Assembly (NCBI GenBank): GCA_041879295.1
Contig: CP047152.1
Location: 1,865,501 to 1,929,500, forward strand
Source of the DNA: Pseudomonas putida
GTDB lineage: Bacteria; Pseudomonadota; Gammaproteobacteria; Pseudomonadales; Pseudomonadaceae
Reading direction: 5' to 3'
DNA: 64,000 nt
In this document: positions 1 to 30,823 of the stretch, piece after piece
Layout: each line of letters opens with the position of its first letter
Numbering within the stretch: position 1 is the first letter of the stretch
Translations under genes and position numbers: made by a program
Notes under the pieces: model-generated
What the model saw: only the letters and a program-made list of their open reading frames with translations
Told to the model about the DNA's origin: nothing
The model's database searches: none

Positions 1-1735
1 AGGCGGCGTAGGGCCGGACGTCAAGGTCGGGGTGGCCCTCGAACGCTCGCCACAGATGCTCGTCGCGTTGTTGGCCGTGCTCAAGGCCGGGGGTGCCTAT
101 GTACCGCTGGACCCTCATTACCCGGACGAGCGGCTGGCCTACATGATGGAGGACAGCGGCATCAGGCTGCTGCTGACCCAACCTTCGCTACAGGCACGCC
201 TGCCGATACCGGTCACGGTTCAGTGCCTGTTGCTGGCGCCCGAGCACCTGCTGGGCAGTGGCTGCAACGCGGCAGCCTACGGTGTGCACAACCCGCAGCT
301 GCAACTGTCGGCCGAGCACCTTGCCTACATGATCTACACCTCGGGCTCCACCGGCAGGCCAAAAGGGGTGATGGTGCCCCACGGCGCCCTGGTCAACTTC
401 ATCGCCAGCATGGCCAAGGCGCCGGGGCTGGCTACCGGCGATCGCCTGTTGTCGTTGACCACGTTCTCGTTCGATATCTTCGGGCTGGAGGTGTACCTGC
501 CTCTGGTGCAGGGTGCCTGCGTGGTCCTGGCCGGTCCGGATACCGCACAGGACCCGCAGCGGGTACTGGAGCTGGTCGCGCGGCAGGCGGTGACCGTGTT
601 GCAGGCCACCCCTTCGACCTGGCGCATGCTGCTAGACAGCGGCCGCGGTGAGGTGCTGGCGGGCTGCACGAAGTTATGTGGCGGTGAAGCGCTGAGCGAT
701 GACCTGGCGCAGCGGCTGCTGGCCCTGGGCGGGCCGTTGTGGAACCTGTACGGGCCGACCGAAACCACCATCTGGTCAGCGCTGCACCGCTTGCAGCCCG
801 CCAGGCCGCAGGCGTTGCTCGGCAGGCCGTTGGACAATACCCGGCTCTACCTGCTGGGTGAGGACCTGGCGCCGGTACCCGTTGGCGTTGCCGGCGAGCT
901 GCTGATTGGCGGGGCGGGGCTGGCGCGCGGGTATTACCAGCGGCCTGGGCTGACCGCCGAGCGTTTCGTCCCCGACCCGTTCGCCGAGAACGGTGAGCGG
1001 CTGTACCGTACCGGCGACCTGGCACGCTATCGGGCCGATGGTGTGGTGGAGTACCTCGGACGAATCGACCAGCAGGTGAAGATTCGTGGCTATCGTATTG
1101 AACTCGGTGAAATCGAGGCACAACTGGCGCGTCATCCCGCCATTCGCGAAGCGGCGGTGGTCGCCCGGCCGGGGCCTGGAGGCCAGCAACTGGTGGCTTA
1201 CCTGGTGCCGCAGGACGTGGCCGTGGTCGACGATGGGCAAACGCGCGAGGCACTGGGCGAGGCGTTGAAGCGGCAACTGCGCAGCGCGTTGCCGGAGTAC
1301 ATGGTGCCGACCTGGACGACGTTCGTCGCGACCTTCCCCCATACCCCCAATGGCAAGCTTGACCGCAACCGGCTGCCTGCCCCCGACCTGAGTGTCGCCC
1401 GGGTGGCCTACCTGGCACCGCAGAGCGAGCTGCAGCAGCAAGTGGCGCAGATCTGGCAGGAGGTACTGCACGTCGATCAGGTCGGCCTTGCCGACAACTT
1501 CTTCGACCTCGGCGGGCATTCGCTGCTGGCCACCCAGGTCACCGTGCGCCTGCGTGAGCAGTTGAAGCTGGAAACAGCAGTCAAGGCGCTGTTCACCACC
1601 CACGACCTGCAAGCCTACTGCGCCGAGATCGCAGTCGCCCCGCCGCAAACCCAGGCGGTCAACGATGCCTTGGCTAAATCCTTGGAGGCCCTCAAACGTC
1701 TATCAGCCGAAGATCTGGAAAATCTGATCTCTTGA
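1..1735 (+). CDS. Pyoverdine-type NRPS, 3' part: adenylation (Gly) and thiolation domains
   Basis: The open frame runs in from the left edge, so the N-terminus and any condensation domain are missing. The visible part is an A domain with its core motifs ([32 protein letters not shown]) followed by a T domain with the carrier serine in GGHSL. The ten specificity positions read D-I-L-Q-C-G-L-I-W-K, one change from the classic glycine code, so this module should load Gly. The protein ends in a short helical tail ([13 protein letters not shown]) that could dock to the next synthetase, whose gene starts 12 bases later in the same operon. The T domain is GGHS-type with no epimerase behind it, which fits achiral Gly. 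It acts in the cytoplasm on the siderophore assembly line. The amino-acid call is inferred from the code alone. Confidence 0.9.
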
Positions 1736-1747
1736 CAGGGGAAGGGC

Positions 1748-12042
<10,295 letters not shown>

Positions 12043-12046
<4 letters not shown>

Positions 12047-15000
12047 ACAGTTACGTAGACCAGGCCGACGACATCGGTTTTGCCCTGACCGTCGACCAGC
12101 AACACTGGCTCGATGCCTTGCCCGCTTGCCCGGACTGGTCACAGGCCGCGACGCTGCTGAAGATCTGCGTTCAGGGCCAGCCGGACCCGGCGCGCCTGAG
12201 ACAGGCACTTAGGCGCCTGGTCGAGCGCCACCCGATATTGGTCGGGCGCCTGGGCACTGCCTCGGGATACCGCGGTATGCGCCAGTTCATCGGCGCCCGG
12301 CGGCCAGCCCTGACGCTGGCAGTGCAGGCCGAGGCAGATGCGCCGGCACTGCTTGAGCCTTGGCTGCGGCAGCGCTTCGAAATCGACCAGCTGCCAGCCG
12401 CCCAGGCGTTGCTGGTACCGGCCGCCGAAGCCGGGCAGTGGCATTTATGGCTGGGGGTGGCGGGCTTTGCCTGCGACGAGGCGGGCATGGCCATGCTGTA
12501 CCGTGACCTGACGGCGTTGTATGACACGCCAGCCGGGCCGGATGAAGACCTGCCTGAAGCTTTCGGGCAGTATCTGGAGTGGCGTGCCGAAGTGGCCCAG
12601 GATGAGGATGCAGCGGCAGCCCGTGGCTACTGGCAAGGGCACCTGATGCCAACGGAGCAGGGCATGAGCGCGCCTTGGCCAGCCTATCGCCAGGACCAGC
12701 CAGCGACACACCAGGCACACCATCAGGTGAATCTGCCGCTGGCCTTGCAGGGGCAGTTGCAACGCTTGGCCGACGCCCGTAAGGCCAGCCTGGACACGCT
12801 GCTGCAGGCGGCCTGGTGGGGCTTGCTGGGCCGGCTTGGCGACAGCAACCGGTTGTTGGGCGCATGGCAGCACGATGCGCGACAGGATTATGACTACTTC
12901 GCGAACAGTGCGGGGGCGTTCAGCAAGCTATTGCCGTTGTGCCTGCAGTGGGCTGACGAAACCCGTTTCGGCGAGCACCTTGCAGCACTCGGCGCCGCGC
13001 TGGAGCAGCATGTGGCGTGGCAGGAGTACTGGGTACCGGAATGGGTGCCCACAGCCGTGCCGACCGTGGCGTTTTCCACTACTCCGGCGCTCGCGCCGCA
13101 GGTTGCCGGCGGGCTGTGCTGGCAGGGCGAGCTACTGGCGCCACGCCTGCCGGCGGGCATTGAGCTGCAGCTGCGCATTTGCCCAGCGGCGGGTGCTGAC
13201 CAACCGATTACCGTGAGCCTGGATTACCTGGCCGGGCGCTACAGTGCGCGCGGCATGCAAGGCCTGCTGGAGCAGTACATCGAGTTGCTGCGCAGCATCG
13301 TCCAGGCGCCGGACCGCCCGCTGCGGCAGTTGAACCTGCTGGGTGAAGCCGAGCGCCAGCGCCTGCTGTCGATCAACCCCGCACCGCAGCCACTGGGCGC
13401 GACGTCATTGGCGGCGCAGATCAGCCAGTGGGCAATCGACACCCCCGACGCGCTGGCGCTGATTGCAGATGACGCGGGGCTGAGTTACGCCCAACTGGAG
13501 CTGACAGTGCAGCGCCTGGCGCTGGCGCTGCAGCAGGCTGGCGTGCAACCCGGGGCGGTGCTGGCACTGGCACTGCCGCGCTCGCTGGACTGGGTCGTGG
13601 CGATGTTGGCCTGTTGGCGCGTCGGCGCGGCTTACCTGGCGCTGGAGCCGCACTGGCCCGTTGCCCGGCAGGTGCGCCTGATGACACAGGCCGGGGCCAC
13701 GCAGGTGCTGGTCGAACCGGCAGCGGTGGCCAGCCTGCGTGAGCAGGGCGTGGAAGCGCTGAGCCTCGACAGCCTGTACCCGCTGGCGGTTGACACTGCA
13801 CGGCTGCAACCGCACGCCGCCAGCGCCAGCGATGCCGCCTATGTTCTGTTCACCTCGGGCTCGACAGGCACCCCCAAAGGCGTGGTGGTCGAGCACCGGC
13901 AACTGCTGAACTACACCGCAGGCGTGTGCCACACGCTGGCGCTGGAGGACTGTCGTCACTTCGCCTTCGGCTCGACCGTGTCGGCCGACCTTGGCCATAC
14001 CACGCTGTTCGCTGCCTTGTATGTGGGCGCGACACTGCACGTGGCCGCCGACGAGGTGATGAAGGATGCCGAACTGTTTGCTGCGTACCTCGAGCAGCAG
14101 GCAATCGACTGCCTGAAGATCGTGCCATCGCACCTGAGCGCGCTGCTGGAGTCGAGGGCACCGGCAGTACCGGCCACCGTCATTCTGGGGGGGGATGCCC
14201 CGAGCGCGGCGTTGCTGCAGCGCCTGTTGCAGATACGTCCGGACTGCAAGCTGTTCAACCATTACGGCCCGACCGAAACCACGGTCGGGGTCATGGTGCA
14301 CCCGGTACGGGCGGTGCCGACTGGCACCCTCGGGTTGTCGCAGGTGTTGCCCAATAACCAGGTCTATGTGCTGGATCAACACTTGCAGTTGGCGGTCACC
14401 GGCATGCTGGGCGAACTGTATGTCGGTGGGCAGCAGGTGTGTCGCGGCTACCTGCAAGCCGTGCAGAGTGACCAGCCGGCTTTCGTCGAGAGCCCGTTCG
14501 TGGCAGGCGAACGGCTTTACCGCACCGGCGACCTGGCGCGCTATCGCCCGGACGGTGCTATCGAGCTGCAAGGCCGGCGCGACCATCAGGTGAAGATACG
14601 CGGCTTCCGCATCGAGCTGGCGGAGATCGAGGCACAGCTGTCGGGCGCACCGCAGGTGGTCGAGGCGGCGGTGTTGTGTGATGGAGAAGCGCTGAGCGCG
14701 TATGTCAGCTTGCGCGACGAGGCCACGGCGGCTGCCCTGGACGCGGTCCGCGAGTACCTTGGCCAGCAACTGCCGGCGGTGATGCTGCCGCGTACCCTGC
14801 AGGCATTGCCGCGGTTGCCGCGCCTGGGCAACGGCAAGCTCGACCGGCCAGCGTTGCGGCAGATGGGCAATGAACCTGCGGCGGGTCTGCTGGCCCCGCG
14901 TGATGCACTGGAAACCGTGATTGCGCAGCGCATGGCGCAACTGCTGGGGCTGGAGCAAGTGGGCATCGAGCAGGACTTTTTTGCACTGGGCGGGCATTCG

Positions 15001-15219
15001 CTGCTGGTCATCAAGCTGGCGGCCGGTATCCGCAAGTCGCTGCAGTGCGACATCAATCCGGGTGTCATTTTCGACCACCCGACGGTTGCTACCCTTGCCC
15101 AGGCGCTGCGCGAGCGCGAAGCCAACCCTGGCCAGTTGCTCAAATTGGCCCAGGCTCGTCTGCGGCTCGACAGCATGAGCCCTGAAGAAAAAGCCCGGCT
15201 GCTGGAAAAGAGCCGCTAA
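12043..15219 (+). CDS. Pyoverdine-type NRPS: interface (degenerate C-like) domain-A(Asp)-T
   Basis: This 1058-aa synthetase overlaps the stop of the preceding gene by 4 bases, so translation is probably coupled. Residues 10-440 have the layout of a condensation domain but lack the catalytic HHxxxDG; the matching place, near residue 140, reads GFACDEAG. This fits the non-catalytic interface domain described for siderophore synthetases that partner with fused Asp beta-hydroxylases. The A domain (about 455-960) reads D-L-T-K-I-G-H-V-G-K, an aspartate code. The T domain carries Ser986 in GGHSL and no epimerase follows. With the C3 and hydroxylase domains of the upstream protein it forms one complete module installing beta-hydroxy-Asp, an iron-chelating residue. 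A strong hairpin follows the stop. The tail (SPEEKARLLEKSR) may dock to the Thr synthetase encoded on the opposite strand. Confidence 0.9.
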
Positions 15220-15232
15220 GCCTCACCACGCC

Positions 15233-15264
15233 CAGGGGCGGGCAACCCGCCCCTGAGGTCTTTT
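15233..15264 (+). terminator. Rho-independent-like terminator after the + strand NRPS operon
   Basis: A ten-pair GC-rich stem (CAGGGGCGGG paired with CCCGCCCCTG) around a CAA loop is followed by AGGTCTTTT. It lies 13 bases after the stop of the Asp synthetase gene and separates the NRPS operon from the receptor gene. Confidence 0.75.
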
Positions 15265-15319
15265 GCATTGCCCCCCGTACTGCCGTGCCGATTGCGTGGA
15301 AGGATGCCGGCAAGATACT

Positions 15320-15338
15320 AATGCAAAAAATTCTCATT
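15320..15338. promoter_or_regulatory. Putative Fur box upstream of the siderophore receptor
   Basis: An AT-rich 19-base partial palindrome with AATG at one end and CATT at the other. The opposite strand reads AATGAGAATTTTTTGCATT, close to the GAGAAT-type half-sites of Pseudomonas Fur boxes. It sits about 190 bases before the receptor start. The rest of the 306-base gap (15220-15525) holds the NRPS terminator and no TAAAT-N16-CGT box. Confidence 0.45.
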
Positions 15339-15525
15339 CTGGATTTTCCAGGGTGATGCGTCTTATGTAGGAGCGCGCTGAAAGCCACACGTGGCAAGCC
15401 GTTTTGACTTGCGTGTCAGGCGTCTGTCGCGGGATCTGCCCGGGGGAGGATGGGCAGCTCGGCCGTTTGGAGGCCGTTGGCGGGCGCGGGACGATTTCAT
15501 TACCCGATATAAATAGAGAAATACC

Positions 15526-18018
15526 ATGCCAGCAGGATTTTTCGAGTTCAAACCATTGGCCAAGGCGCTTTGCATGTCCCGCTCGATCAGCGCCCGCTCA
15601 TCCCGGGCGTTGCTCGGTAAAGGGGTGCTGGGCGCCGCATTGATGCTGCCCATGGCCGCCCAGGTCTGGGCTCAGGGGGTCAACTTCGACATCGCTGCCC
15701 AGTCGCTGCCCAACGCCTTGCGTGCGCTTGGTGAGCAGGCCGATGTGCAGTTCATCTACAACGCCTCGGAAATGGCCGACCTGCGTGGCAACGAAGTGCG
15801 TGGCAGCTACACCGTCGACGCGGCAGTGGCCAAGCTGTTGCGCGGCTTGCCGGTCAGCTACAGCCTGGAGGGCGATACCCTGACCCTGGTGCGGCGTGAG
15901 CGCGCTGCGTCCTCGGCGCTGGAACTGGGCGCCACCAACATCACGGGCAACACGTTGGGCGTGACCACCGAAGGCAGCAACTCGTATACCACCGGTGGCG
16001 TCACCATCGGCAAGAGCGAACACAAGCTCAAGGATATTCCGCAGAGCGTGTCTGTGATGACCCGCAAGCGCATGGATGACCAGAACATCACCGACCTGAC
16101 GGAACTGTTGGCCAACGCCCCAGGCATGACCTTCGCCAAAAGCCCGGGCACCGGCGGCTTCATCACCTCGCGCGGTTTTGAAATCGACTCGCTGCAGTAC
16201 GATGGCGTGCCCATGACCCGTGGCATCTATGCGCTGGGCAGCTACCTGACCGAACCCACGGCATTCTATGACCGTGTCGAACTGCTGCGTGGCGGCGCTG
16301 CGCTGCTGCAGGGGGCCAACAGCCCCGGTGGCGCGATCAACTTCGTGCGCAAGCGCGGCCAGGCCAAGCCGACGGTCACCCTGACCGCCCAGGCCGGTTC
16401 CTGGGACCACTATGCCACCCAGGTGGACGTTGGCGGCCCGCTGAACGAGGCGGGCAACATACGTGGGCGTGCGGTGGTCGACTACGATACGCGCAACTCT
16501 TTCATCGACTATGTGGGCGGCTGGGAACAGAAGGTCTACGGTGCGCTGGACTTCGATCTGTCTGAAGACACCACCCTCGGTGTCGGCATCAGCGATCGCA
16601 AGACGCGTTTCACGCCCATGGTCGCCGGTTTGCCGCGCTTCAGTGACGGCCGCGACGTAGGCTTGTCGCGCTCGACATTCACCGGCTCCGACTGGAACCG
16701 CGGCATGACCGAGCAGCTGGCGTTGTATGTCGACCTCGAGCACCGCTTCAACGACCACTGGAAGTTCAAGACCGCGGCGGTGGCGATCAACGAGCGCAAC
16801 GAAATGACCTACGCCTACGTGGTAGCCCCGACCGGCCTGGCCAACGATGGGTCCGGCTTGTTCGACTGGCGCTACGCCACCGATTTCAACTCCCACAGCC
16901 GCGGCCTGGACATGTTCGTCGATGGCGACTTCAACGGGTTTGGCTTCGACCAGGAAGTGGTGTTCGGCGGTAACTACTCACGCTTCACCAGCGACAACAC
17001 CATGGCGGTGGTGCGCAGCGCCGGGGCGAACATTTTCGATCTCGACAACCACTTGCCCTTCGAGAACTACGACAGCCTGGCGGCCCGTGGCACGCGTACC
17101 GACAGCCAGTACACGATCGTGCAGAAAGGTATCTACGGTACCTGGCGCGTCAAGCTGACCGACCCGCTGACCCTGATCCTCGGTGGGCGTACCAGCTGGT
17201 ACTCCTACGATTACGACTCTCAGGTCTATCAGGCCGGTGTTCATGAGTACGACAGCCCGGCTTCCAAGGCCAACAACGGTGTCGTGACGCCTTATGTGGG
17301 GCTGGTTTATGAACTGACCCCGCAATGGTCGGCCTATGCCAGCTATGCCGACGTCTTCATCCCGCAGAGTGCCAAGGGCGTCGGTGGCTCCACGATCGAG
17401 CCGATCGTTGGCAGCAACTACGAACTCGGTCTGAAGGGGGAACTCTACGATGGCCAGGTCAATACCAGCGTTGCCCTGTTCCGCTATGACCACGAGAACC
17501 GAGCGGTGCCGGTTCAGGATGTCACGCAAATCTGTGATGGGTCCAGATGCTCGGAAGCGTCCGGCAAAGTGCGTAGCCAGGGCCTTGAGGCCGAGATCAA
17601 CGGTGAGGTGCTGCCAGGCCTGCAAGCGTCGGCCAGTTACGTCTACAACACCACCAAGTACCTCAAGGACAACACGAACGAGGGCAAGATCTTCTCCACC
17701 TGGACGCCGAAACACTCGGTGAAGGTGTGGACGGACTACACCCTGCCTGGTGACTTCAGCCGCTTCAGTGTCGGCGGCGGTTTCAACAGCCAGAGCAGTA
17801 CCGTTGCCTTCGATCGCAAGTTCGATTCGCCCGGCTTCACCATCTGGAATGCGCGCCTTGGTTACAAGGTCAGCGACGAAGTCAGCCTGGCGGTCAACTT
17901 CAACAACATCTTCGACAAGGTCTACTACATTCCGTCGTATGCGGCCGTCACTGCCAACAACTATTACGGCGACCCTCGCAACTTCATGTTCTCGGTCAAA
18001 TACACCCCGCAGTTCTGA
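15526..18018 (+). CDS. fpvA: TonB-dependent ferric siderophore (pyoverdine-type) receptor with signalling domain
   Basis: An 830-aa outer-membrane receptor. It has a long N-terminal signal region ending near VWAQG, then a secretin/TonB short N-terminal domain (about 50-125, FDIAAQSLPNAL start), a plug domain (about 155-275) and a 22-strand-type barrel ending in phenylalanine (KYTPQF). The signalling domain marks it as a transducer of the FpvA class, which contacts a periplasmic anti-sigma factor as well as TonB; no sigma/anti-sigma pair lies in this window. Its place between the synthetase genes makes the cognate siderophore the probable ligand. The first ATG is used here; an ATG at 15574 also gives a good signal peptide and is an alternative start. 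The gene symbol is assigned by family and context. Confidence 0.88.
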   Translation: MPAGFFEFKPLAKALCMSRSISARSSRALLGKGVLGAALMLPMAAQVWAQGVNFDIAAQSLPNALRALGEQADVQFIYNASEMADLRGNEVRGSYTVDAAVAKLLRGLPVSYSLEGDTLTLVRRERAASSALELGATNITGNTLGVTTEGSNSYTTGGVTIGKSEHKLKDIPQSVSVMTRKRMDDQNITDLTELLANAPGMTFAKSPGTGGFITSRGFEIDSLQYDGVPMTRGIYALGSYLTEPTAFYDRVELLRGGAALLQGANSPGGAINFVRKRGQAKPTVTLTAQAGSWDHYATQVDVGGPLNEAGNIRGRAVVDYDTRNSFIDYVGGWEQKVYGALDFDLSEDTTLGVGISDRKTRFTPMVAGLPRFSDGRDVGLSRSTFTGSDWNRGMTEQLALYVDLEHRFNDHWKFKTAAVAINERNEMTYAYVVAPTGLANDGSGLFDWRYATDFNSHSRGLDMFVDGDFNGFGFDQEVVFGGNYSRFTSDNTMAVVRSAGANIFDLDNHLPFENYDSLAARGTRTDSQYTIVQKGIYGTWRVKLTDPLTLILGGRTSWYSYDYDSQVYQAGVHEYDSPASKANNGVVTPYVGLVYELTPQWSAYASYADVFIPQSAKGVGGSTIEPIVGSNYELGLKGELYDGQVNTSVALFRYDHENRAVPVQDVTQICDGSRCSEASGKVRSQGLEAEINGEVLPGLQASASYVYNTTKYLKDNTNEGKIFSTWTPKHSVKVWTDYTLPGDFSRFSVGGGFNSQSSTVAFDRKFDSPGFTIWNARLGYKVSDEVSLAVNFNNIFDKVYYIPSYAAVTANNYYGDPRNFMFSVKYTPQF

Positions 18019-18030
18019 ACCTGGGGCCAC

Positions 18031-18069
18031 GCAGGCCATCTTGGCGGGTACCCCGCCCAGATGGCCTGC
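18031..18069. terminator. Bidirectional hairpin between convergent receptor and pvdO genes
   Basis: An 18-base arm (GCAGGCCATCTTGGCGGG) pairs with its inverted copy with one mismatch around a 2-3 base loop. It fills most of the 57-base gap between two convergent stops. There is no clear T run, so it may act as a barrier or RNA stabiliser as well as a terminator. Confidence 0.6.
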
Positions 18070-18075
18070 GCCAGG

Positions 18076-18954
18076 TCACAGCTCCCGCGCTACACGAAAG
18101 CCCAGGAAGTCGCCACGTACCGTGCGTTCGCGATCATTGCGATTGCCCGAACGCGAGAAGATCGGCGCTTCACCCCAGTCATTACCGCGCATGTGCGCCG
18201 CCTGGCAAAGCCCGCCGTCGGCCTCCATCCAGGCACTGCCATCGCTGGGCGCGCCGACGTAGTCCTTGTGGTAGCAGTCGGCGACCCATTCATACACGTT
18301 CCCGTGCATGTCATAGACGCCAAAGGCATTGGGCGGGTAGCTGCCAACCGGTGAGGTATAGCTGTAGCCGTCCTTGGGGCCGTAGGTATTGGCATGCTTG
18401 CTGATCTGGTAATCGCCTTCTTCGTCGAACGGGAACGGAAACGGCCCGGTGGAGCCGGCCCGTGCCGCGTACTCGCGTTCGGCCTCGCTGAGCATGCGGT
18501 AAGTGTGGCCGGTCTTTTTGCTTAGCCACTGCGCATAGGCCTGCACATCGTAGTAATCGACGCACACTGCCGGCTGGCGCGGCCCTTGCGGGTAGCGAGG
18601 CTTGCTGGCCTGGCACAGGCGCCCTGGGCGTTTGTCACCGTCCTTGATGACCACGCCGGTTTCCTTGATATAGGCATCCAGCTCGCCGGCGGTGACCTGG
18701 AAGCGGCTGATGGCGAAGGGTTTGGCGAAGGTCACGGTATGTTGCGGGCCTTCGTCGGGTTGCTTGCCCGGCTCGTCATCCGGCGTGCCCATGACGAAAC
18801 TGCCCGCAGGCAGCACGACCATTTCCGGGCAGCCGGCCTTGCAATCCTGGAAGACCTCGCCCGGGGTCTTGCCGGCAGCCTGGGCGAGTAGCGGGCAGGC
18901 CGCCATGGCCAGGGCAAGGGCCAGGCCGGTGACGGTGTAGGGGGCGCACTTCAT
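18076..18954 (-). CDS. pvdO: PvdO-like formylglycine-generating-enzyme-fold protein (pyoverdine maturation)
   Basis: A 292-aa protein with a signal peptide (MKCAPYTV to LLAQAAG) and an FGE-sulfatase fold. Family motifs visible include PAGSFVMG, YRMLSEAEREYAARAG, GVYDMHGNVYEW and a C-terminal GFRV. In P. aeruginosa PvdO acts in the periplasm in the last oxidation that converts dihydropyoverdine to the mature fluorophore. The start is placed at the ATG preceded by AAAGGAAA, because the longer frame upstream has no signal-like N-terminus. It follows the Thr synthetase gene by 37 bases on the same strand and should share its PvdS-type promoter. Overall sequence resembles PvdO more than catalytic sulfatase-modifying enzymes, judged by eye. 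Confidence 0.82.
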   Translation of the reverse strand: MKCAPYTVTGLALALAMAACPLLAQAAGKTPGEVFQDCKAGCPEMVVLPAGSFVMGTPDDEPGKQPDEGPQHTVTFAKPFAISRFQVTAGELDAYIKETGVVIKDGDKRPGRLCQASKPRYPQGPRQPAVCVDYYDVQAYAQWLSKKTGHTYRMLSEAEREYAARAGSTGPFPFPFDEEGDYQISKHANTYGPKDGYSYTSPVGSYPPNAFGVYDMHGNVYEWVADCYHKDYVGAPSDGSAWMEADGGLCQAAHMRGNDWGEAPIFSRSGNRNDRERTVRGDFLGFRVAREL

Positions 18955-18991
18955 GGCGAACGTTTCCTTTTTGGCAGGTGTGACGGGGTAT

Positions 18992-21900
18992 TCAGGGTGC
19001 CGGGCAGCTACGGCCAAACGCCTCGATGAACGAGTCGATCAGGGGCTGCTCCAGCATCATGGTTTCGTGTGGGTAGGGTGAGTGCAGCGAAACGTCCAGC
19101 TCACCCCCTGCGCAGAACTGGCGGATGACCTGCTCGGCGGAGTGAATGTGTGCTGCGCTCTTGTGCACCTGCGACCACCAGCAGCTGGGCTTGACCCTGA
19201 GCGGAGTGAGGGTGAAATCGGCGAAACTCGCTTCCAGCTGGTCGTGGATGTCGAACGCCTGGGCATTCATGATCTGGGCCTTGGCACTGGCCAGCACGCC
19301 CTGGACATCGGTGCCAGCGTCAGCCAGGTGCGCCGTGGCCCACTGGTAGAACGCCTTGATGTCCTGAGTAGGGTTGGCGTGCAGCTGCTCGGTGGCGGCC
19401 TGCCTGGCCTGCGGGAACAACAGCCCGAACAGCTCGACGGTGTCTTGCAGTTCGCGCTGGCCCGGTGCATCGCTGTGGCGGGCTGGGCGAGGGGTGTGAT
19501 GGGGGAACGCGGCGCGGCTCAACTGCGCCTCGGGCAGAGTGCTATCGACCAGCCCCAGGAATGCGACCTCGCAGCCGGCCTGTTCCAGCTGCCGGGCGAT
19601 GTCCCAGGCAATGCTGCCGCCCAGCGACCAGCCCATCAGGCGGTACGGCCCGGACGGTTGTGCCTGGCGGATCTGTGCGGTGTAGTCGGCGATCATTGCT
19701 TGCCAGCCCTGCTGTTCGGCCGGCGCCGGGCTGCCGCCCCGGTGCTGCACGCCGTAGACGCAAGCCTGCTGCTCCAGGCAGCGGGCCAGCGGCTGATAGC
19801 TGAAGACCATGCCGCCGCTGGGGTGGATACAGAACAATGCAGGCAGCGGTGTGGCCGGGCGGTTGAGGGGCACGATGCACGGGCTCGCAGAGGCATGCTC
19901 ACGGCCCAGATGTGCGGCCAGCAGGTCGATGCGGGGGTAGGCGAGCAGGTCCTGGATACGCACTGCCAGGCCCAGTTCCTGCTTGATGCTGGCCAGCAGC
20001 TGGATAGCCAGCAACGAGTGGCCACCCAGTTCGAAGAAGTGATCGTCGCGGCTGATACGTTCGACGTTGAGCGCGGTTTGCCACAACGTGGCCAAGGCCT
20101 GTTCAAGCGTGCCTTGGGGAGCGTTGTAGGCTTGCTGCAACAGGTTGGCATCGGCCTTGGGTAAGGCCTTGCGGTCGAGCTTGCCGTTGGCCGTCAGCGG
20201 CCACCGGTCGAGCAGCAACAGGTGCGCCGGGACCATGTAGTCCGGCAGCGCCTCCTTCAGCTGTTCGCGCAACTGCGCGCGCAGCCCGGCCTGCTGCTCC
20301 AGCGCTACCTCGGCAGCGGGTATCAGGTAGGCCACCAGTTGCTGGCCGGTCGCGCCTTCCTGGGCCAGCACCAGGGCCTCGCGCACCTGCGGCTGGGCCT
20401 GCAGGCGGGCTTCGATCTCGCCCAGCTCGATGCGGAAGCCGCGGATCTTCACCTGGTGGTCGATGCGCCCGGCGTATTCGATCACCCCGTCGGCGTGGTA
20501 GCGCGCCAGGTCACCGGTGCGGTACAGGCGCCCGCCAGGGGCACCGAACGGGTCCGGCACGAAGCGCGTGGCGCTCAGTTCGCTGCGCTTGAGGTAGCCG
20601 CGTGCCAGGCCGGCGCGGCCCACGTACAGCTCACCGATGCAGCCTTTGGCTACCGGGTTCAGGTCGCCGTCGAGCACATACCAGGACAGGTCGGGGATCG
20701 GCACGCCCATCGGGCTGCTGGCCGCCTTGCCCAGGTCAGCCAGCGACAGCGGCCGGTAGCTGACATGCACGGTGGTTTCGGTGATGCCGTACATGTTCAC
20801 CAGCTGCGGCTGGCGGTCGCCGAAGCGTTCGAACCACGGTGCCAGGCTGTTGACGTCCAGCGCTTCGCCCCCGAACACCACGCTGCGCAGTGCCAGCGGC
20901 CGCTGCGGCTCGGCCGTGGTGGCCACCGCCATCAGTTGCTTGAACGCCGACGGGGTCTGGTTCAGCACCGTGACCTGTTCATCGGCCAGCAACTGGTAGA
21001 AGGCCTCGGGCGAGCGGCTGGTGTGCTGCGGCACGATCACCAGGCGCCCGCCGTACAGCAGGGCGCCGAAGATTTCCCACACCGAGAAGTCGAAGGCATA
21101 GGAGTGAAACAGGCTCCACACGTCGTCGCTGCCGAAGCGGAAGTCGGCGTCGGTGGCCGTGAACAGGCGCAGCACGTTGCGCTGCGGCAGCAGCACCCCC
21201 TTGGGCTTGCCGGTGGAGCCGGAGGTGTAGATCACGTAGGCGAGGTTGTCCGGGCTGACCGTGACCGGCGAGCAGGCCAGCGGGTCGGCCTGGCTGCAGT
21301 CATCGTTGCTTTCCAGGCTGAGCACGCGCACGCCTGCCGGCACTGGCAGGCTAGCCAGCACCTGGGGCTGGGCCAGCAGGCGCTGCAGGCCGCTGTCTTC
21401 GATCATGTAGGCCAAACGGTCGGCCGGGTAGGCCGGGTCCAGCGGCACGTAGGCACCGCCGGCCTTGAGGATGGCGAAGATGCCGACGACCATGTCCAGC
21501 GAGCGCTCGGCAGCCAGGCCGACCAGCACGTCGGGCCCGACCCCGTCGTCGACCAGGCGCCGGGCCAGGGCGTTGGCGCGCTGGTTGAGCTGGGCATAGC
21601 TCAGGGCCTGGCCCTCGCAGGTGACGGCGATGGCATCGGGGGTGCGCTGCACCTGGGCCTCGATCCGGCTGTGCAGGGCCTGATCGGCCAGGTGCTCGGC
21701 GGGGGCCGGGTTCCACTGGGCGAAGGTGGCCTGCTGCTCCGGCGTGCCCAGCATGTCGAGCTCGCCCAGCCGTTGCTCGGGCCCCCGGGCCATGGCCAGC
21801 AGCAGGTTCTGCCAGTGCCGGGCCATGCGTTGCACGGTGGCGTGGCTGAACTGGCTGCAGTCGTATTCCAGGCTGAAGCCAAGGCCGTCGGCTGCGTATT

Positions 21901-23200
21901 CAAGGTCGATGCCGATCAGGCATTTGGCCTGGGCGCTGGCGGTATCGAGGAAGTCCAGCTGCAGGGGGCCCAGGGCCAGCGGGCCGCTGGCAGTCCCGGC
22001 CACGCGCCAGTTGAACAGCGCCTGGAACAACTGGGTGGGTAGCACCTGGCCGTTGTGCTGCAGCGTCTCCAGGTACAGCTCCATCGGGTAGTCGCTGTGG
22101 CTCAGGGCCGCAATAGACTGCTCGCGCAGGTTTTGCAGCAGGGTCTGCACGGATTGCTGCGGGTCGAGTTCGGCGCGGTAGATCTGGGTGCTGACGAAAA
22201 AACCTACCAGCTGCTGGGTTTCGCTGCGGTTGCGCCCGGCGCTGGGCACGCCGAGGGTGAATTGCCGCTGGCCGCTGTAGCGGCCCAGCAGCACCTGCCA
22301 GGCGGCCAGGGCGATGACGAAGGGTTGCACGCCCTGCTGCCGGCTGAGCTGCAGCAGGGCCTGGAACACCTCGGCGTCCAGTTGCAGGCCATGGTAGCGG
22401 GCACTGGTGCCCTCAGGCGGCACGCCAGCGCAGCGCGGGTCGAGGTCACCCGGCAACATCAACGGCTGCAGTTCGTCACCCAGCCGGGTATGCCAGTAGC
22501 GGGCAGACGCTTGGCACGCATCACTTTGCAGGTAAGCCTGGCGTTGCCAGATGGCGTAATCGGCATACTGGATGGCGGGCCGTTGCAGCTTGCAGGCTCC
22601 CTGGGCGGCTGCCTGCGAATAGGCGCCCACCAGGTCCTGCAGCAGGATTGGATTGGACCAGGCGTCTGAAACGATGTGGTGCATGTTCAGCAGCAACACA
22701 TGCTCGTCACCTTGTACTTTCACCAGTCGGGCCCGGATCAGGGGCGCCTTGCCGAGGTCGAACGGTGCCAGCGCATCCGCTTCGATGAGCCGCTGCAATG
22801 CATGAGGGCGTTGCGTGGCGGGCATGGCGGTCAGGTCGTCGCAGGGCATTTCGAGGCGTGCGTCGGCTTCGACGAACTGCTGCGGTATGCCCTCGACCTC
22901 GGCGAACCTGCTGCGCAGGATGTCATGGCGGTCGACCACCGCCTGCAAGGCCATGGCCAAGTGCTGGCCATGCAGTTCACCCTTCAGTGACAGTGCCCGT
23001 GGCAGGTTGTACGCCGCGCTCTGCGGGTTGAACTGCTGCAGGTACCACAGGCGCTGCTGGGCGAATGAGAGGGGGGCTGGGCCGGCGCGCTCGCGTGGTG
23101 CTATCCGGTCGGGTTCGGACGGCTCATCCTGGAGGAGGGCGAGCAAGGCGTCGTCCAGCAAGTCTTCAGCGAGCGAGTCGGCATCCAGTGATTCGTGCAT
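18992..23200 (-). CDS. Terminal pyoverdine-type NRPS: C-A(Thr)-T-TE
   Basis: This synthetase of about 1402 aa starts at the ATG after AGGGACCGCC. It has an acidic N-terminal tail, a C domain (about 45-480), an A domain (505-1010), a T domain (1025-1095, GGHSL) and a thioesterase (1108-1400) with the nucleophile Ser1192 in GWSLGGS. The A-domain positions read D-F-W-N-V-G-M-V-H-K, nearly the classic threonine code (D-F-W-N-I-G-M-V-H-K). The C-domain catalytic motif is HHIVSDA, with alanine in place of the usual final glycine. As the only protein here with a TE, it should add the last residue (Thr) and release the chain. It is encoded on the strand opposite to the other synthetases. An exact PvdS box lies 98 bases upstream. 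Whether release is by hydrolysis or cyclisation cannot be told from sequence. Confidence 0.9.
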   Translation of the reverse strand: MHESLDADSLAEDLLDDALLALLQDEPSEPDRIAPRERAGPAPLSFAQQRLWYLQQFNPQSAAYNLPRALSLKGELHGQHLAMALQAVVDRHDILRSRFAEVEGIPQQFVEADARLEMPCDDLTAMPATQRPHALQRLIEADALAPFDLGKAPLIRARLVKVQGDEHVLLLNMHHIVSDAWSNPILLQDLVGAYSQAAAQGACKLQRPAIQYADYAIWQRQAYLQSDACQASARYWHTRLGDELQPLMLPGDLDPRCAGVPPEGTSARYHGLQLDAEVFQALLQLSRQQGVQPFVIALAAWQVLLGRYSGQRQFTLGVPSAGRNRSETQQLVGFFVSTQIYRAELDPQQSVQTLLQNLREQSIAALSHSDYPMELYLETLQHNGQVLPTQLFQALFNWRVAGTASGPLALGPLQLDFLDTASAQAKCLIGIDLEYAADGLGFSLEYDCSQFSHATVQRMARHWQNLLLAMARGPEQRLGELDMLGTPEQQATFAQWNPAPAEHLADQALHSRIEAQVQRTPDAIAVTCEGQALSYAQLNQRANALARRLVDDGVGPDVLVGLAAERSLDMVVGIFAILKAGGAYVPLDPAYPADRLAYMIEDSGLQRLLAQPQVLASLPVPAGVRVLSLESNDDCSQADPLACSPVTVSPDNLAYVIYTSGSTGKPKGVLLPQRNVLRLFTATDADFRFGSDDVWSLFHSYAFDFSVWEIFGALLYGGRLVIVPQHTSRSPEAFYQLLADEQVTVLNQTPSAFKQLMAVATTAEPQRPLALRSVVFGGEALDVNSLAPWFERFGDRQPQLVNMYGITETTVHVSYRPLSLADLGKAASSPMGVPIPDLSWYVLDGDLNPVAKGCIGELYVGRAGLARGYLKRSELSATRFVPDPFGAPGGRLYRTGDLARYHADGVIEYAGRIDHQVKIRGFRIELGEIEARLQAQPQVREALVLAQEGATGQQLVAYLIPAAEVALEQQAGLRAQLREQLKEALPDYMVPAHLLLLDRWPLTANGKLDRKALPKADANLLQQAYNAPQGTLEQALATLWQTALNVERISRDDHFFELGGHSLLAIQLLASIKQELGLAVRIQDLLAYPRIDLLAAHLGREHASASPCIVPLNRPATPLPALFCIHPSGGMVFSYQPLARCLEQQACVYGVQHRGGSPAPAEQQGWQAMIADYTAQIRQAQPSGPYRLMGWSLGGSIAWDIARQLEQAGCEVAFLGLVDSTLPEAQLSRAAFPHHTPRPARHSDAPGQRELQDTVELFGLLFPQARQAATEQLHANPTQDIKAFYQWATAHLADAGTDVQGVLASAKAQIMNAQAFDIHDQLEASFADFTLTPLRVKPSCWWSQVHKSAAHIHSAEQVIRQFCAGGELDVSLHSPYPHETMMLEQPLIDSFIEAFGRSCPAP

Positions 23201-23297: not shown

Positions 23298-23322
23298 ACG
23301 AGCCGCCGCACGGCAAATTTAC
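23298..23322 (-). promoter_or_regulatory. PvdS-type iron-starvation (IS) box for the Thr synthetase-pvdO operon
   Basis: On the minus strand the sequence reads GTAAAT, 16 bases, CGT. This matches the TAAAT-N16-CGT element recognised by the ECF sigma factor PvdS in fluorescent pseudomonads. It lies 98 bases before the synthetase start and just after the 3' end of the exporter gene. Confidence 0.8.
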
Positions 23323-23403: not shown

Positions 23404-25053
23404 TCAGGCCGGCTGGGCTGCGGTGCGGACCTTGCCGCTGTCCATGTGTACCAGCTGGTCGGCAATATCGAAGTAGCGGTCATCGTGGGAGATGACAATG
23501 ATGGTCTTGCCCAGGCGCTTGAGGTCCGGCAGCAGCTCTGTGTAGAAGATGCGGCGGAAGGTTGGGTCCTGATCGGCTGCCCACTCGTCGAACACCAGCA
23601 CCGGGCGCTGCTCCAGCCAGGCGCTGATCAGTGCCAGGCGCTTGCGTTGCCCGGTGGACAGGTCGGTGGTGGTGAAGGCGCCGTCGCGTACGCTGACCTT
23701 GTGCGCGATCTCCAGGCGTTGCAGGTATTGGGTAGCATCGTCGGGAATCTGCTGGTCGCCCTGGACCACGTCGTCGAACAGGTAGTAGTCGGCGAAAATG
23801 GTGGTGAACAGTTGTCGGTAGTCATCCCGGTCAAGCACCGAGACCGGCTGACCATCCAGCAGGATGTCACCACTGTGCGGCGCATACAGGCCAAGCAGCA
23901 GCTTGATCAGCGTGGTCTTGCCACAACCGTTCTCGCCGACGATGAACACGATGTCGCCCTGGTTGATCGTGAGGTTCACCGGGCCCAGGCGAAACGGCGT
24001 GCTGCCCTCGACTGCCGGAAATGCGTACTGCACATTGCGCAGCTCCAGGCTGTCGATGGCCTGGCGGGGAGCGCCTTTGCCGTCGAGCAGCAGGTCAGGT
24101 TCGGGCGAGGAAAACTGCTCTGACAGCTCGGCAATGCGCTGGAATGCCACCTGTGCCTTGCTGACCAGCGGCAGTACGCTGACCAGATGGTCCAGTGGGC
24201 CTTTCATGTACAGCAGCACCAGCACGAAGCCGGTCATTGCCGCCTGATCGACGCTTGTCCAGGTGCTCTGCAAGGCCAGTGCCAGGCCGATGACGATGAA
24301 GAACAGCGTCGAGCCGAACGTCTTGGCCAGGATGTAGGTGTTGACTGCCTTGATCTGGATGGCGCTGATCCGCTCGCTGATCCCCTGAATGTGTCGGGTG
24401 AACATGCGATACCGGCGCGGCCGGTGTATGCGCAGCTCCTTGGCGCCCTGGGCAATTGCGTTGTAATGCTTCTGCAGATCGTCCTCGGCCTCGCGGGCGG
24501 TGTTGAACCCCTTGATGCCGCGCGTGCGGGCGATGACCTGGGCGGTAATGCCGGCGCCCAATGCCAGCAGCATCAGCAGGAACAGCGGGCCGGACAACGT
24601 TGCCAGGTAGCCCATGCAGCCCAGCGTCACCGTCAGCGAAATGGTCAGGGGGGCGAAGGCGAACGAGAAATCGCTGATGGTATCGATATCGTGGGTCAGC
24701 ACCGGGATCAGGCGGTGGCTGCGATAGCGCTCGATCTGCTCGATGGGCGCCGAAAGCACTTTTTCGCCCAACTCCTTGCGCAGTTTGGCGATGATCTTCT
24801 GGCCAACGAAATTGGTGCCCATGTCGGAGAAGATGCTGCTGAGCAAGGTCAGCACGCAGAGGCCGGCAAACAACCACAGCACGGCATGGGTCAGCCCTGC
24901 TTCGCTGTTGAGGGCGCGGTTGATGGTGGCCAGCAGCGTGGTGACGCTGAAGCCGCCGAGGATGCCCAACAGTATGGACACCAGCACGATGGGCCAGAAC
25001 GGCTTGAGCAATTGGGCAAGCTCGCGGGGCGCGCTGAGCGGTTTGCGAATCAT
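23404..25053 (-). CDS. pvdE: PvdE-like cyclic-peptide-export ABC transporter (fused TM and ATPase domains)
   Basis: A 549-aa half-transporter, the same length as P. aeruginosa PvdE from memory. Six membrane segments (about residues 20-330) precede an ATPase domain with Walker A GENGCGKTT, a signature in the form STGQRKR and Walker B VLVFDEW. PvdE exports the cytoplasmic precursor ferribactin across the inner membrane for maturation in the periplasm. The start at MIRKPLSAP is chosen because it has a GGAGAAG ribosome site and lies 22 bases after the acyltransferase stop. The longer frame would overlap that gene. It is co-transcribed with the acyltransferase. Confidence 0.9.
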   Translation of the reverse strand: MIRKPLSAPRELAQLLKPFWPIVLVSILLGILGGFSVTTLLATINRALNSEAGLTHAVLWLFAGLCVLTLLSSIFSDMGTNFVGQKIIAKLRKELGEKVLSAPIEQIERYRSHRLIPVLTHDIDTISDFSFAFAPLTISLTVTLGCMGYLATLSGPLFLLMLLALGAGITAQVIARTRGIKGFNTAREAEDDLQKHYNAIAQGAKELRIHRPRRYRMFTRHIQGISERISAIQIKAVNTYILAKTFGSTLFFIVIGLALALQSTWTSVDQAAMTGFVLVLLYMKGPLDHLVSVLPLVSKAQVAFQRIAELSEQFSSPEPDLLLDGKGAPRQAIDSLELRNVQYAFPAVEGSTPFRLGPVNLTINQGDIVFIVGENGCGKTTLIKLLLGLYAPHSGDILLDGQPVSVLDRDDYRQLFTTIFADYYLFDDVVQGDQQIPDDATQYLQRLEIAHKVSVRDGAFTTTDLSTGQRKRLALISAWLEQRPVLVFDEWAADQDPTFRRIFYTELLPDLKRLGKTIIVISHDDRYFDIADQLVHMDSGKVRTAAQPA

Positions 25054-25075
25054 GGGGAAGTCTTCTCCAGGCGGA

Positions 25076-26095
25076 TCAAAGGACGTGGTCATCAAAGAAG
25101 GCTTCACGCTCCAGACGCAGCAGAGCGGCTTTCTTGTGGGCCAGTTGAATGTCCTTCAGGTGGCCGAACCCCTGGGACTTGAGGAAGTCGATCTGGCGCG
25201 TATGGTCGATGCGCGGCTCGCCGAGAATCCGCTGGGTGCGTGGGTCATCGAGGAACATGTAATGCATCAGCGAGCGGAACCAGCCGCGCAGTTTGCCGAT
25301 GCCCTGGTGCTTGGGCTCGCCGATCACCACATGCCAGCCACGGTCGTAATCGGCGACGTCGTAGTAGGGGGCGATGCGGTCTTCCTTGCACCAGTACACC
25401 TCGAAGTAGGCGAAGGGTTCGTCATCGAAGCAGCCGATCAGCGGGTGTACGCGCGGGTCGTCGAGCATTTCGCGAATGTATTGCGCATGTTCTTCCGGAG
25501 TGCCGGTCTGCTCCCAGAAGAACGCGACTTGCTCCAGGTTCATCCAGCGGTTGAAGGCTGCAAGGTCCTTCACCGGGTCGATGGTGCGCAGTGAAAAGGT
25601 GGCGTTCAGCTTCGGCAGATGGCGTCGATAGACTTCGCCCGCCGGTTTGGGCGGGCGTTGTGGGTGGCGTTTCTCGCCTCTGAAGCAATAACGCGGGGCA
25701 GTGTGCACGCTGGCCGGCTCACGCAGCCATGGCAGGGGTTGCTGCCAGAAGGTCTGGCGGGTGCAGCGCAGGGCAAGCCTGCCTTGGTCGTCGACCTGCC
25801 AATGATCGAAAATGCCTTCACGTACGGCACGCACGGCAAATTCCCGGTCGCCAGGGACCTGCACATTCACCTCGTTGCATTGTTTGCGGTGGCAGAAACG
25901 GGTCGCCAGTACCGCCAGCATCGCGCTGGCCGGAAATGCTGGCGGAAGTTGCTCGAAGACGATGCGGTTGTCGACCTCCCGGTAGGGGATGGCGGCGCTG
26001 CTGTCGAGGCGCAGGCTGCCGCTCTCTGGCGTTTCATCCTGGGCACTGGCTTTGCGGCCATCGGCCAGGATCAGACTGAAAGAGGGTGCGTTCAT
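25076..26095 (-). CDS. Siderophore N-hydroxyornithine acyltransferase, GNAT (AlcB/PvdYII-like)
   Basis: A 339-aa protein whose C-terminal half (about 170-339) is a siderophore-type GNAT domain: an NRWMNLEQVAFFWEQ helix, PLIGCFDDEPFAYFEVYW, then GIGKLRGWFRSLMHYMF. Relatives (IucB, AlcB, PvdYII) transfer an acyl group from CoA to a hydroxylated amine, making the hydroxamate that binds Fe(III). Here the acceptor is probably N5-hydroxyornithine. The donor could be acetyl-CoA or hydroxybutyryl-CoA, which sequence alone does not decide. The start is the ATG preceded by CAGGAAG; the upstream extension overlaps opmQ and is not protein-like. A one-mismatch PvdS box lies 56 bases upstream. No formyltransferase gene (pvdF) is present. 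Confidence 0.82.
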   Translation of the reverse strand: MNAPSFSLILADGRKASAQDETPESGSLRLDSSAAIPYREVDNRIVFEQLPPAFPASAMLAVLATRFCHRKQCNEVNVQVPGDREFAVRAVREGIFDHWQVDDQGRLALRCTRQTFWQQPLPWLREPASVHTAPRYCFRGEKRHPQRPPKPAGEVYRRHLPKLNATFSLRTIDPVKDLAAFNRWMNLEQVAFFWEQTGTPEEHAQYIREMLDDPRVHPLIGCFDDEPFAYFEVYWCKEDRIAPYYDVADYDRGWHVVIGEPKHQGIGKLRGWFRSLMHYMFLDDPRTQRILGEPRIDHTRQIDFLKSQGFGHLKDIQLAHKKAALLRLEREAFFDDHVL

Positions 26096-26150
26096 AGGGC
26101 TTCCTGTGAGGGGGCGAGTGCGACTTGTCGGGTGCTGTCCATGGATAAAG

Positions 26151-26174
26151 ACGAACCGCACCTGCCGATGTTTA
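26151..26174 (-). promoter_or_regulatory. Near-consensus PvdS-type IS box for acyltransferase-pvdE, overlapping the opmQ 3' end
   Basis: The minus strand reads TAAAC, 16 bases, CGT. Spacing and the CGT element are exact, with one change in the TAAAT element. It lies 56 bases upstream of the acyltransferase start and overlaps the stop codon of opmQ. Confidence 0.55.
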
Positions 26175-30742: not shown

Positions 30743-30798
30743 GCAGGGTTCCGGCCAAAGTAAATTCCTCCGAGACACGTCGCGGGGTTGTACTTTGA

Positions 30799-30823
30799 AC
30801 GAGAAGCAGCCCGCAAAATTTAC
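30799..30823 (-). promoter_or_regulatory. PvdS-type iron-starvation (IS) box for pvdR-pvdT-opmQ
   Basis: The minus strand reads GTAAAT, 16 bases, CGTTC, an exact match to the PvdS element TAAAT-N16-CGT. It lies 57 bases before the pvdR start, a usual distance for an ECF promoter, and indicates iron-starvation control of the efflux operon. Confidence 0.82.

What the first reader, a model, noticed from the sequence alone, without database searches (positions are those of the whole stretch)
1..23200. Predicted C-terminal half of the siderophore: Gly-D-Ser-L-Ser-OHAsp-Thr
Specificity residues read from the four synthetases give Gly (DILQCGLIWK), Ser (DVWHISLIDK) with epimerase, Ser (same code), Asp (DLTKIGHVGK) with a beta-hydroxylase, and Thr (DFWNVGMVHK) with the only thioesterase. 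Most P. putida pyoverdines I recall end in cyclo-hydroxyornithine, so a free or cyclised Thr end is a minority type. From memory, a pyoverdine reported from P. putida isolates contains Gly-Ser-Ser-OHAsp-Thr after a hydroxybutyryl-hydroxyornithine-containing start; this cluster could be its genetic basis. That literature match is unverified.
Basis: partly seen in the sequence, partly recalled or inferred. Interest (0 to 1): 0.75.

Follow-up and report, generated by a model that had tools for sequence, protein, structure and literature searches.

The report
Known-type pyoverdine assembly line ending in threonine
These genes build the second half of an iron-scavenging molecule (a pyoverdine) whose predicted building-block order matches one already reported for Pseudomonas putida F1, so the finding is correct but describes a largely known system.

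Summary
Window 1-23200 encodes the last five modules of a pyoverdine assembly line: Gly, Ser plus epimerase, Ser, Asp with a fused TauD-type hydroxylase, and Thr plus the only NRPS-fused thioesterase found in the genome. One detail was misread: the Gly code is DILQLGLIWK, not DILQCGLIWK. Upstream DNA of the same genome adds PvdL and a 5230-aa synthetase coding Asp, OHOrn (E), Dab (E), Thr. The full prediction, Asp-acylOHOrn-Dab-Thr-Gly-Ser-Ser-OHAsp-Thr, matches residue for residue the peptide printed for P. putida F1/PutC (Asp-OHbutOHOrn-Dab-Thr-Gly-Ser-Ser-OHAsp-Thr, MW 1370, PMC4219678). The printed mass fits a linear free acid (calculated 1370.51), not a cyclised end (1352.50). A GNAT acyltransferase beside pvdE fits the acylated hydroxyornithine; hydroxybutyryl versus acetyl cannot be read from sequence. 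Less expected: inside the repeated Ser and Thr A-domain blocks, site patterns in two genomes suggest homogenisation by gene conversion. Verdict: confirmed, already known, low interest.

The parts
1..1735 (+). 3' part of the 1130-aa C-A(Gly)-T synthetase (gene begins upstream of the window, C1:1863843)
   Evidence: Pfam AMP-binding and PP-binding; code DILQLGLIWK
1748..12046 (+). 3432-aa synthetase C-A(Ser)-T-E-C-A(Ser)-T-C-TauD
   Evidence: Pfam, whole-genome C and A hits, codes DVWHISLIDK twice
5057..6379 (+). epimerisation domain after the first Ser module
   Evidence: Condensation-family hit; HHLVVDG motif and clustering with three other E-type domains of this line in the C-domain tree
9599..10909 (+). 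intact condensation domain before the hydroxylase (HHIISDG)
11102..11965 (+). TauD-type Fe(II)/2-oxoglutarate hydroxylase domain fused at the C-terminus (H-N-E and distal H motifs), proposed to make beta-OHAsp
   Evidence: Pfam TauD E 8.8e-44; solved TauD-like relatives; motif positions
12043..15219 (+). 1058-aa synthetase: interface-like degenerate C domain - A(Asp) - T
   Evidence: weak Condensation match, HHxxxDG aligned to AGFACDE; code DLTKIGHVGK
15526..18018 (+). TonB-dependent siderophore receptor, FpvA-like
   Evidence: Pfam; NCBIfam TIGR01783 336 bits, cut-off 223.5
18076..19017 (-). PvdO, dihydropyoverdine dehydrogenase
   Evidence: NCBIfam NF051459 531.2 bits, cut-off 500
18992..23200 (-). 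terminal synthetase C-A(Thr)-T-TE (ORF open to 23311; ATG at 23200 is the likely start)
   Evidence: Pfam, code DFWNVGMVHK, TE motif GWSLGG and start position
19523..19840 (-). matched part of the thioesterase domain; active-site Ser codon at 19625-19627
23298..23321 (-). PvdS-type iron-starvation box (TAAAT-N15..17-CGT, consensus recalled) upstream of the ATG of the terminal synthetase
   Evidence: 3 matches in window; 0.72 expected; 6 of 100 shuffles reach 3
23404..25107 (-). PvdE-like peptide export ABC transporter
   Evidence: Pfam; NCBIfam TIGR01194 780 bits, cut-off 286.2
25076..26281 (-). GNAT acyltransferase ORF (Acetyltransf_8), proposed hydroxyornithine N5-acyltransferase
   Evidence: Pfam E 3.6e-52
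3163..4800 (+). Ser A-domain DNA block, copy 1 (97.25% identical to copy 2)
7694..9330 (+). Ser A-domain DNA block, copy 2
20075..21738 (-). Thr A-domain DNA block, partner of C1:1861937-1863600 in the upstream synthetase (97.1% over 1664 bases, 97.8% over 1640)

Best explanation
The window holds the second half of the peptide synthetase line of a pyoverdine of the P. putida F1/PutC type, Asp-acylOHOrn-Dab-Thr-Gly-Ser-Ser-OHAsp-Thr behind the chromophore precursor made by PvdL. The acylated peptide passes from PvdL to the 5230-aa protein (Asp, D-OHOrn, D-Dab, Thr), then to the Gly module, then to the 3432-aa protein, which adds D-Ser and L-Ser. The condensation and hydroxylase domains at its end join the chain to, and hydroxylate, the Asp held on the next protein, whose degenerate C-like domain docks the hydroxylase. 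The opposite-strand synthetase adds Thr, and its thioesterase most likely hydrolyses the chain to a linear free acid. Shown here: gene order, domains, codes, no other NRPS found in the genome. Inferred: hand-over order between proteins, hydroxylation of that Asp, 3-hydroxybutyryl as the acyl group, linear release. The confidence covers the line and its residue order; linear release and the acyl group are less sure (see rivals).
For: Domains and codes. Nine of nine predicted residues agree in order with the F1/PutC peptide printed in PMC4219678 Table 2. Calculated mass of the linear succinic-acid form 1370.51 against the printed 1370. Acyltransferase next to pvdE; one strong ornithine-monooxygenase hit, at C1:2156732, of five hits; four formyltransferase-family hits, none near the pvd loci. 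PvdO over its curated cut-off. A second genome (G081, whose contig length and coordinates equal those of Pseudomonas sp. LB-090624) keeps the locus at 95.5% DNA identity over 51 kb with the same nine peptide modules (one residue of its Gly code fell in a gap; its PvdL was not examined).
Against: No direct sequence comparison with the F1 cluster was possible. Amino acid meanings of the codes are recalled, not taken from a predictor. In pyoverdine PL9 the same last residues (Ser-Ser-OHAsp-Thr) are printed as cyclised, so a Thr-TE end does not by itself mean linear. The printed masses behave like values calculated from the structures (18 of 20 rows), so 1370 may not be an independent measurement; one row without brackets (1187) is lighter by one water than its printed chain, so an unmarked ring is possible in that table. 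No exact iron-starvation box was found upstream of PvdL, the 5230-aa gene or the receptor gene.
Confidence: 0.88

Rival explanations
1. Same peptide, but the thioesterase cyclises it: the Thr carboxyl closes on a Ser or Thr hydroxyl or on the Dab side-chain amine.
For: Pyoverdine PL9 with the tail (Ser-Ser-OHAsp-Thr) is printed as cyclic in PMC4219678, and its printed mass 1150 fits the cyclic form, 1150.41.
Against: The printed F1 mass 1370 fits the linear form (1370.51) and not the cyclic one (1352.50); the F1 entry is printed without brackets.
Confidence: 0.12
2. Same peptide, but hydroxyornithine carries acetyl (or another acyl) instead of 3-hydroxybutyryl in this strain.
For: Relatives of the acyltransferase at 61-79% identity occur in 15 other genomes of the 398 searched, besides the 97% copy in G081, so the family is not private to this cluster; sequence alone does not show acyl choice.
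Against: The only printed compound I found with this whole peptide carries OHbut; the acetyl form would weigh 1326.48.
Confidence: 0.12
3. The opposite-strand Thr-TE synthetase does not act last in this line and belongs to another product.
For: It is encoded on the other strand, beyond the receptor gene.
Against: No other NRPS and no other NRPS-fused TE was found in the genome; the gene sits between pvdO and pvdE; an iron-starvation box precedes it; the same arrangement recurs in G081.
Confidence: 0.02

Closest known systems
Pyoverdine of P. putida F1 / PutC (Asp-OHbutOHOrn-Dab-Thr-Gly-Ser-Ser-OHAsp-Thr; PMC4219678 Table 2, seen in passages)
   Same: All nine residues in order; OHAsp and Thr at the end; acylated hydroxyornithine supported by an acyltransferase gene
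   Different: Acyl identity and linear or cyclic end not tested for this strain; F1 DNA not available for comparison
Pyoverdine PL9 (Ser-AOHOrn-Ala-Gly-(Ser-Ser-OHAsp-Thr); same table)
   Same: Same last five residues Gly-Ser-Ser-OHAsp-Thr
   Different: Different first three residues (Ser-AOHOrn-Ala) in place of Asp-OHbutOHOrn-Dab-Thr; printed as cyclised
P. putida NBRC 14796 pyoverdine (Asp-Orn-Dab-Gly-Ser-Ser-OHAsp-Thr; PMC12195549 Table 4, seen in passages)
   Same: Same tail Gly-Ser-Ser-OHAsp-Thr and Asp-Orn-Dab start
   Different: No Thr before Gly; no acyl group printed on Orn
Fused siderophore aspartyl beta-hydroxylases with interface domain (IBH_Asp; Reitz et al. 2019, known here only through passages of PMC12971057 and PMC7100376 and from recall)
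   Same: TauD domain fused to the C-terminus of an NRPS; neighbouring C-like domain without HHxxxDG; Asp module next
   Different: Whether the split over two proteins seen here is usual was not checked; stereochemistry (expected L-threo) not tested

Membership tests
Pyoverdine biosynthesis cluster | Chromophore NRPS PvdL with acyl-ligase start and three further modules | tested here: met
   C1:1780427-1793599, four AMP-binding hits and four condensation-family hits in a 4390-aa frame
Pyoverdine biosynthesis cluster | Chromophore maturation enzyme PvdO | tested here: met
   NF051459 531.2 bits, cut-off 500
Pyoverdine biosynthesis cluster | PvdE-type exporter and TonB-dependent siderophore receptor beside the peptide synthetases | tested here: met
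F1/PutC-type pyoverdine | Residue order Asp-OHOrn-Dab-Thr-Gly-Ser-Ser-Asp-Thr | tested here: met
   9 of 9 codes in collinear order; code meanings recalled
F1/PutC-type pyoverdine | 3-hydroxybutyryl on N5 of hydroxyornithine | tested here: inconclusive
   GNAT acyltransferase present; substrate not readable
F1/PutC-type pyoverdine | Linear C-terminal Thr, MW 1370 | not testable with these tools
   Calculated mass agrees, but no MS of this strain
F1/PutC-type pyoverdine | DNA orthology with the F1 cluster | not testable with these tools
IBH_Asp hydroxylase with interface domain | TauD domain fused at the C-terminus of an NRPS | tested here: met
IBH_Asp hydroxylase with interface domain | C-like domain lacking HHxxxDG next to the Asp A domain | tested here: met
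   16 of 17 C-type domains of this line keep the HH pair, only the 1058-aa protein's lacks it
IBH_Asp hydroxylase with interface domain | Placement in the IBH_Asp clade or profile | not tested
   reference sequences and that profile were not at hand; the Pfam and NCBIfam hits include no such model

The most novel reading that the evidence does not exclude
The repeated residues of this pyoverdine are kept by ongoing gene conversion of whole A-domain blocks. The Ser/Ser pair in one gene and the Thr/Thr pair in two oppositely oriented genes about 22 kb apart are each homogenised separately in two related genomes, with edges near the C-A and A-T linkers. The same exchange could copy a specificity to another module in one step.
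Probability: 0.6. Interest if true: 0.4.

Novelty: already known. Interest (0 to 1): 0.22.

Why it matters
It ties a complete gene set, module by module, to a pyoverdine known from the literature and gives concrete masses to check. The A-domain blocks look like a natural example of module copying with clear edges, of use to those who engineer peptide synthetases.

Tried and rejected
Formyl-hydroxyornithine was considered and set aside: four formyltransferase-family hits in the genome all lie far from the pvd loci, while a GNAT acyltransferase is next to pvdE. I did not assign those four hits one by one.

A second TE-bearing synthetase elsewhere was looked for and not found.

I tried to read acyl choice from the neighbourhoods of acyltransferase relatives. 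Ten of the 15 other genomes at 61-79% identity were fetched, up to 20 kb to each side (13 kb on one side of one). All 10 showed NRPS A domains there, 7 of 10 with a DGE..GGVTK-type (OHOrn, recalled) code, some read with one gap. The motif scan misses A domains and the clusters run past the fetched ends, so no acyl group could be assigned.

Receptor relatives in named genomes: 60 loci returned; I scanned 5 of them (L024-L028) for synthetase codes. L024 has Ser, Asp, Thr-TE as here; L028 has another code, then Asp and Thr, with its TE motif in a separate frame and no TauD motif found by my pattern; L025-L027 showed no synthetase within 10 kb by this scan.

A literature search for papers holding at least two of six terms (five specificity codes as strings, and pyoverdine) found nothing; nor did one for pyoverdin, hydroxybutyryl, OHAsp and putida together.

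Full report
WHAT IS THERE. The window is G000:C1:1865501-1929500 of a 6.05 Mb genome in three contigs. Its first 23.2 kb hold the end of one peptide synthetase gene and three whole ones, a receptor gene and pvdO; pvdE, an acyltransferase and an outer-membrane channel/MacB/MacA-type efflux set follow to about 30.8 kb (the MacA-type adaptor is named from its sequence and place, not from a family search). PvdO is identified by a curated model over its cut-off, so this is a pyoverdine locus.

CODES. I re-derived the ten specificity residues by aligning A domains and reading the positions anchored on known motifs. The amino acid meanings of the codes are recalled; no predictor was available.

THE WHOLE LINE. 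Fetching 90 kb upstream gave PvdL (C1:1780427-1793599) and a 5230-aa synthetase (C1:1848154-1863846) with codes DLTKVGHVGK (Asp), DGEGSGGVTK (OHOrn), DIWELTADDK (Dab) and DFWNVGMVHK (Thr), with E domains after the second and third modules. The genome's 18 condensation-domain hits all lie in PvdL and the five peptide synthetases. Of six thioesterase-family hits only the one after Thr lies in a synthetase. The prediction is therefore Asp - D-(acyl)OHOrn - D-Dab - Thr - Gly - D-Ser - Ser - OHAsp - Thr.

HYDROXYLASE. The 3432-aa protein ends in an intact C domain and a TauD domain. The next protein begins with a C-like domain in which HHxxxDG is replaced (AGFACDE), the only one of the 17 C-type domains of this line without the HH pair. 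As I recall it, this is the layout described for fused siderophore aspartyl hydroxylases with an interface domain (Reitz et al. 2019, not held here). Passages of PMC12971057 and PMC7100376 confirm the fused-hydroxylase class, not the interface domain. From that literature L-threo-OHAsp is expected. PMC7100376 is inconsistent between its abstract and introduction on which enzyme gives which isomer; its abstract and results assign L-threo to the fused domain.

LITERATURE. A full-text search for Gly-Ser-Ser-OHAsp-Thr found two papers. PMC4219678 (passages read) lists in Table 2, under MW/Da, P. putida F1, 1370, Asp-OHbutOHOrn-Dab-Thr-Gly-Ser-Ser-OHAsp-Thr, with P. putida PutC as another producing strain. 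PMC12195549 (passages read) lists Asp-Orn-Dab-Gly-Ser-Ser-OHAsp-Thr for P. putida NBRC 14796. PMC5187384 (passages read) gives the predicted peptide Asp-Orn-Dab-Thr-Gly for its clade IV strains F1, DOT-T1E, TR01 and LS46 (ND6: Asp-Orn-Dab-Gly-Ser), citing Ye et al. 2013 for all but DOT-T1E; that paper was not read. PMC3056050 (passages read) notes a peptide NRPS cluster with pvdE and fpvA in all four P. putida strains it compares, F1 among them. In the searches I ran on this I found no complete module-to-residue assignment of this tail, but the library holds only open-licence papers, and I read only passages.

LINEAR OR CYCLIC. I calculated masses from residue masses and a recalled chromophore formula. 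Of 20 computable rows of that table, F1 included, 18 fit the succinic-acid form as printed, with or without ring. KT2440 (1072) is 1 Da lower and fits the succinamide; the 1187 row, printed without brackets, is one water lighter than its chain. The F1 peptide gives 1370.51 linear and 1352.50 cyclised, so the printed 1370 fits a free C-terminal Thr. The regularity suggests that many printed values are calculated from the structures, so 1370 need not be an independent measurement. PL9, with the same last five residues, fits its printed cyclic form (1150.41). A Thr-TE end can thus go either way, and the point is open for this strain.

ACYL GROUP. A GNAT acyltransferase lies next to pvdE (25076-26281, -). 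In 398 genomes of the genus, own included, 239 have a relative at E <= 1e-60; among the listed matches 17, own included, are at 61% identity or more. Neighbourhoods of 10 of these were read and did not settle the acyl choice.

RELATIVES. The receptor matches 133 of 398 genus genomes, own included, at E <= 1e-200, but only 4 of the 397 others at 68% identity or more. The nearest, G081 (contig length and coordinates equal to those of Pseudomonas sp. LB-090624, L024), is 95.5% identical over 51 kb and carries the same nine peptide modules. One residue of its Gly code fell in an alignment gap in the script; its PvdL was not examined.

A-DOMAIN BLOCKS. The two Ser modules share a DNA block of about 1.64 kb at 97.25% identity, and the upstream and terminal Thr modules share one of similar length at 97.1-97.8%. 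On the 5' side identity drops to 32-55%; on the 3' side it declines over some 200 bases to about 45%. I compared the four copies of each from the two genomes, with block ends that I chose. For Thr, 21 sites group the copies within genomes and 21 group them by position, but all 21 of the latter lie in the last 56 aligned bases, past the block edge; 2 sites cross. For Ser, 26 sites group within genomes, 11 by position (6 of them at the two ends, 5 inside) and 5 cross. Overall identities are close and by themselves do not decide: Ser own1/own2 97.25, G081 pair 98.11, own1/G081-1 97.31, own2/G081-2 96.27; Thr own1/own2 97.12, G081 pair 96.93, own1/G081-1 97.36, own2/G081-2 96.63. Inside the blocks the site patterns favour homogenisation within each genome, as gene conversion would give, clearly for Thr and less cleanly for Ser. 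Recombination with other strains is not excluded, and only two genomes were compared. Homogenising gene conversion in assembly lines is discussed in print (PMC9205934, passage read), and an intragenic Thr-domain duplication is suggested in another pyoverdine cluster (PMC11366639, passage read).

REGULATION. Three exact matches to a recalled PvdS box lie in the window; two sit just upstream of minus-strand genes (23298-23321 and 30799-30822) and one inside coding sequence. Chance gives 0.72 on average, and 6 of 100 shuffles reach three, so the count alone is weak and the positions are the better argument. In the 154 kb region scanned, no exact match lies just upstream of PvdL, the 5230-aa gene or the receptor gene.

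VERDICT. The finding is right in substance. The system is a pyoverdine line of a type already known in product and strain group.

Noticed in passing
window 3163-4800 and 7694-9330 (+); 20075-21738 (-) with C1:1861937-1863600: Paired Ser and paired Thr A-domain blocks about 97% identical in DNA with clear edges; site patterns against G081 suggest gene conversion within each genome, clearly for Thr and less cleanly for Ser.
   Followed up: partly
window 12043-15219: Between own genome and G081 the OHAsp synthetase is 91.2% identical in protein while the other four peptide synthetases are 97.6-97.9%; the difference is spread along the protein, somewhat stronger in the interface-like domain.
   Followed up: partly
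L025, L026, L027 (match at 10001 onward in each): Receptor relatives at 68-76% identity with no synthetase found within 10 kb by a motif scan; they may be receptors without the matching cluster, or the cluster lies further off.
   Followed up: no
window 26172-30778 (-): Outer-membrane channel, MacB-type ABC pump and a MacA-like adaptor next to the cluster, with an iron-starvation box 20 bases upstream of the adaptor ORF; probably the pyoverdine efflux set.
   Followed up: no
G000:C1:2147691-2157775: A probable stand-alone type II thioesterase and the strongest ornithine-monooxygenase (PvdA-like) hit lie within about 10 kb of each other, about 0.26 Mb from the peptide synthetases.
   Followed up: no
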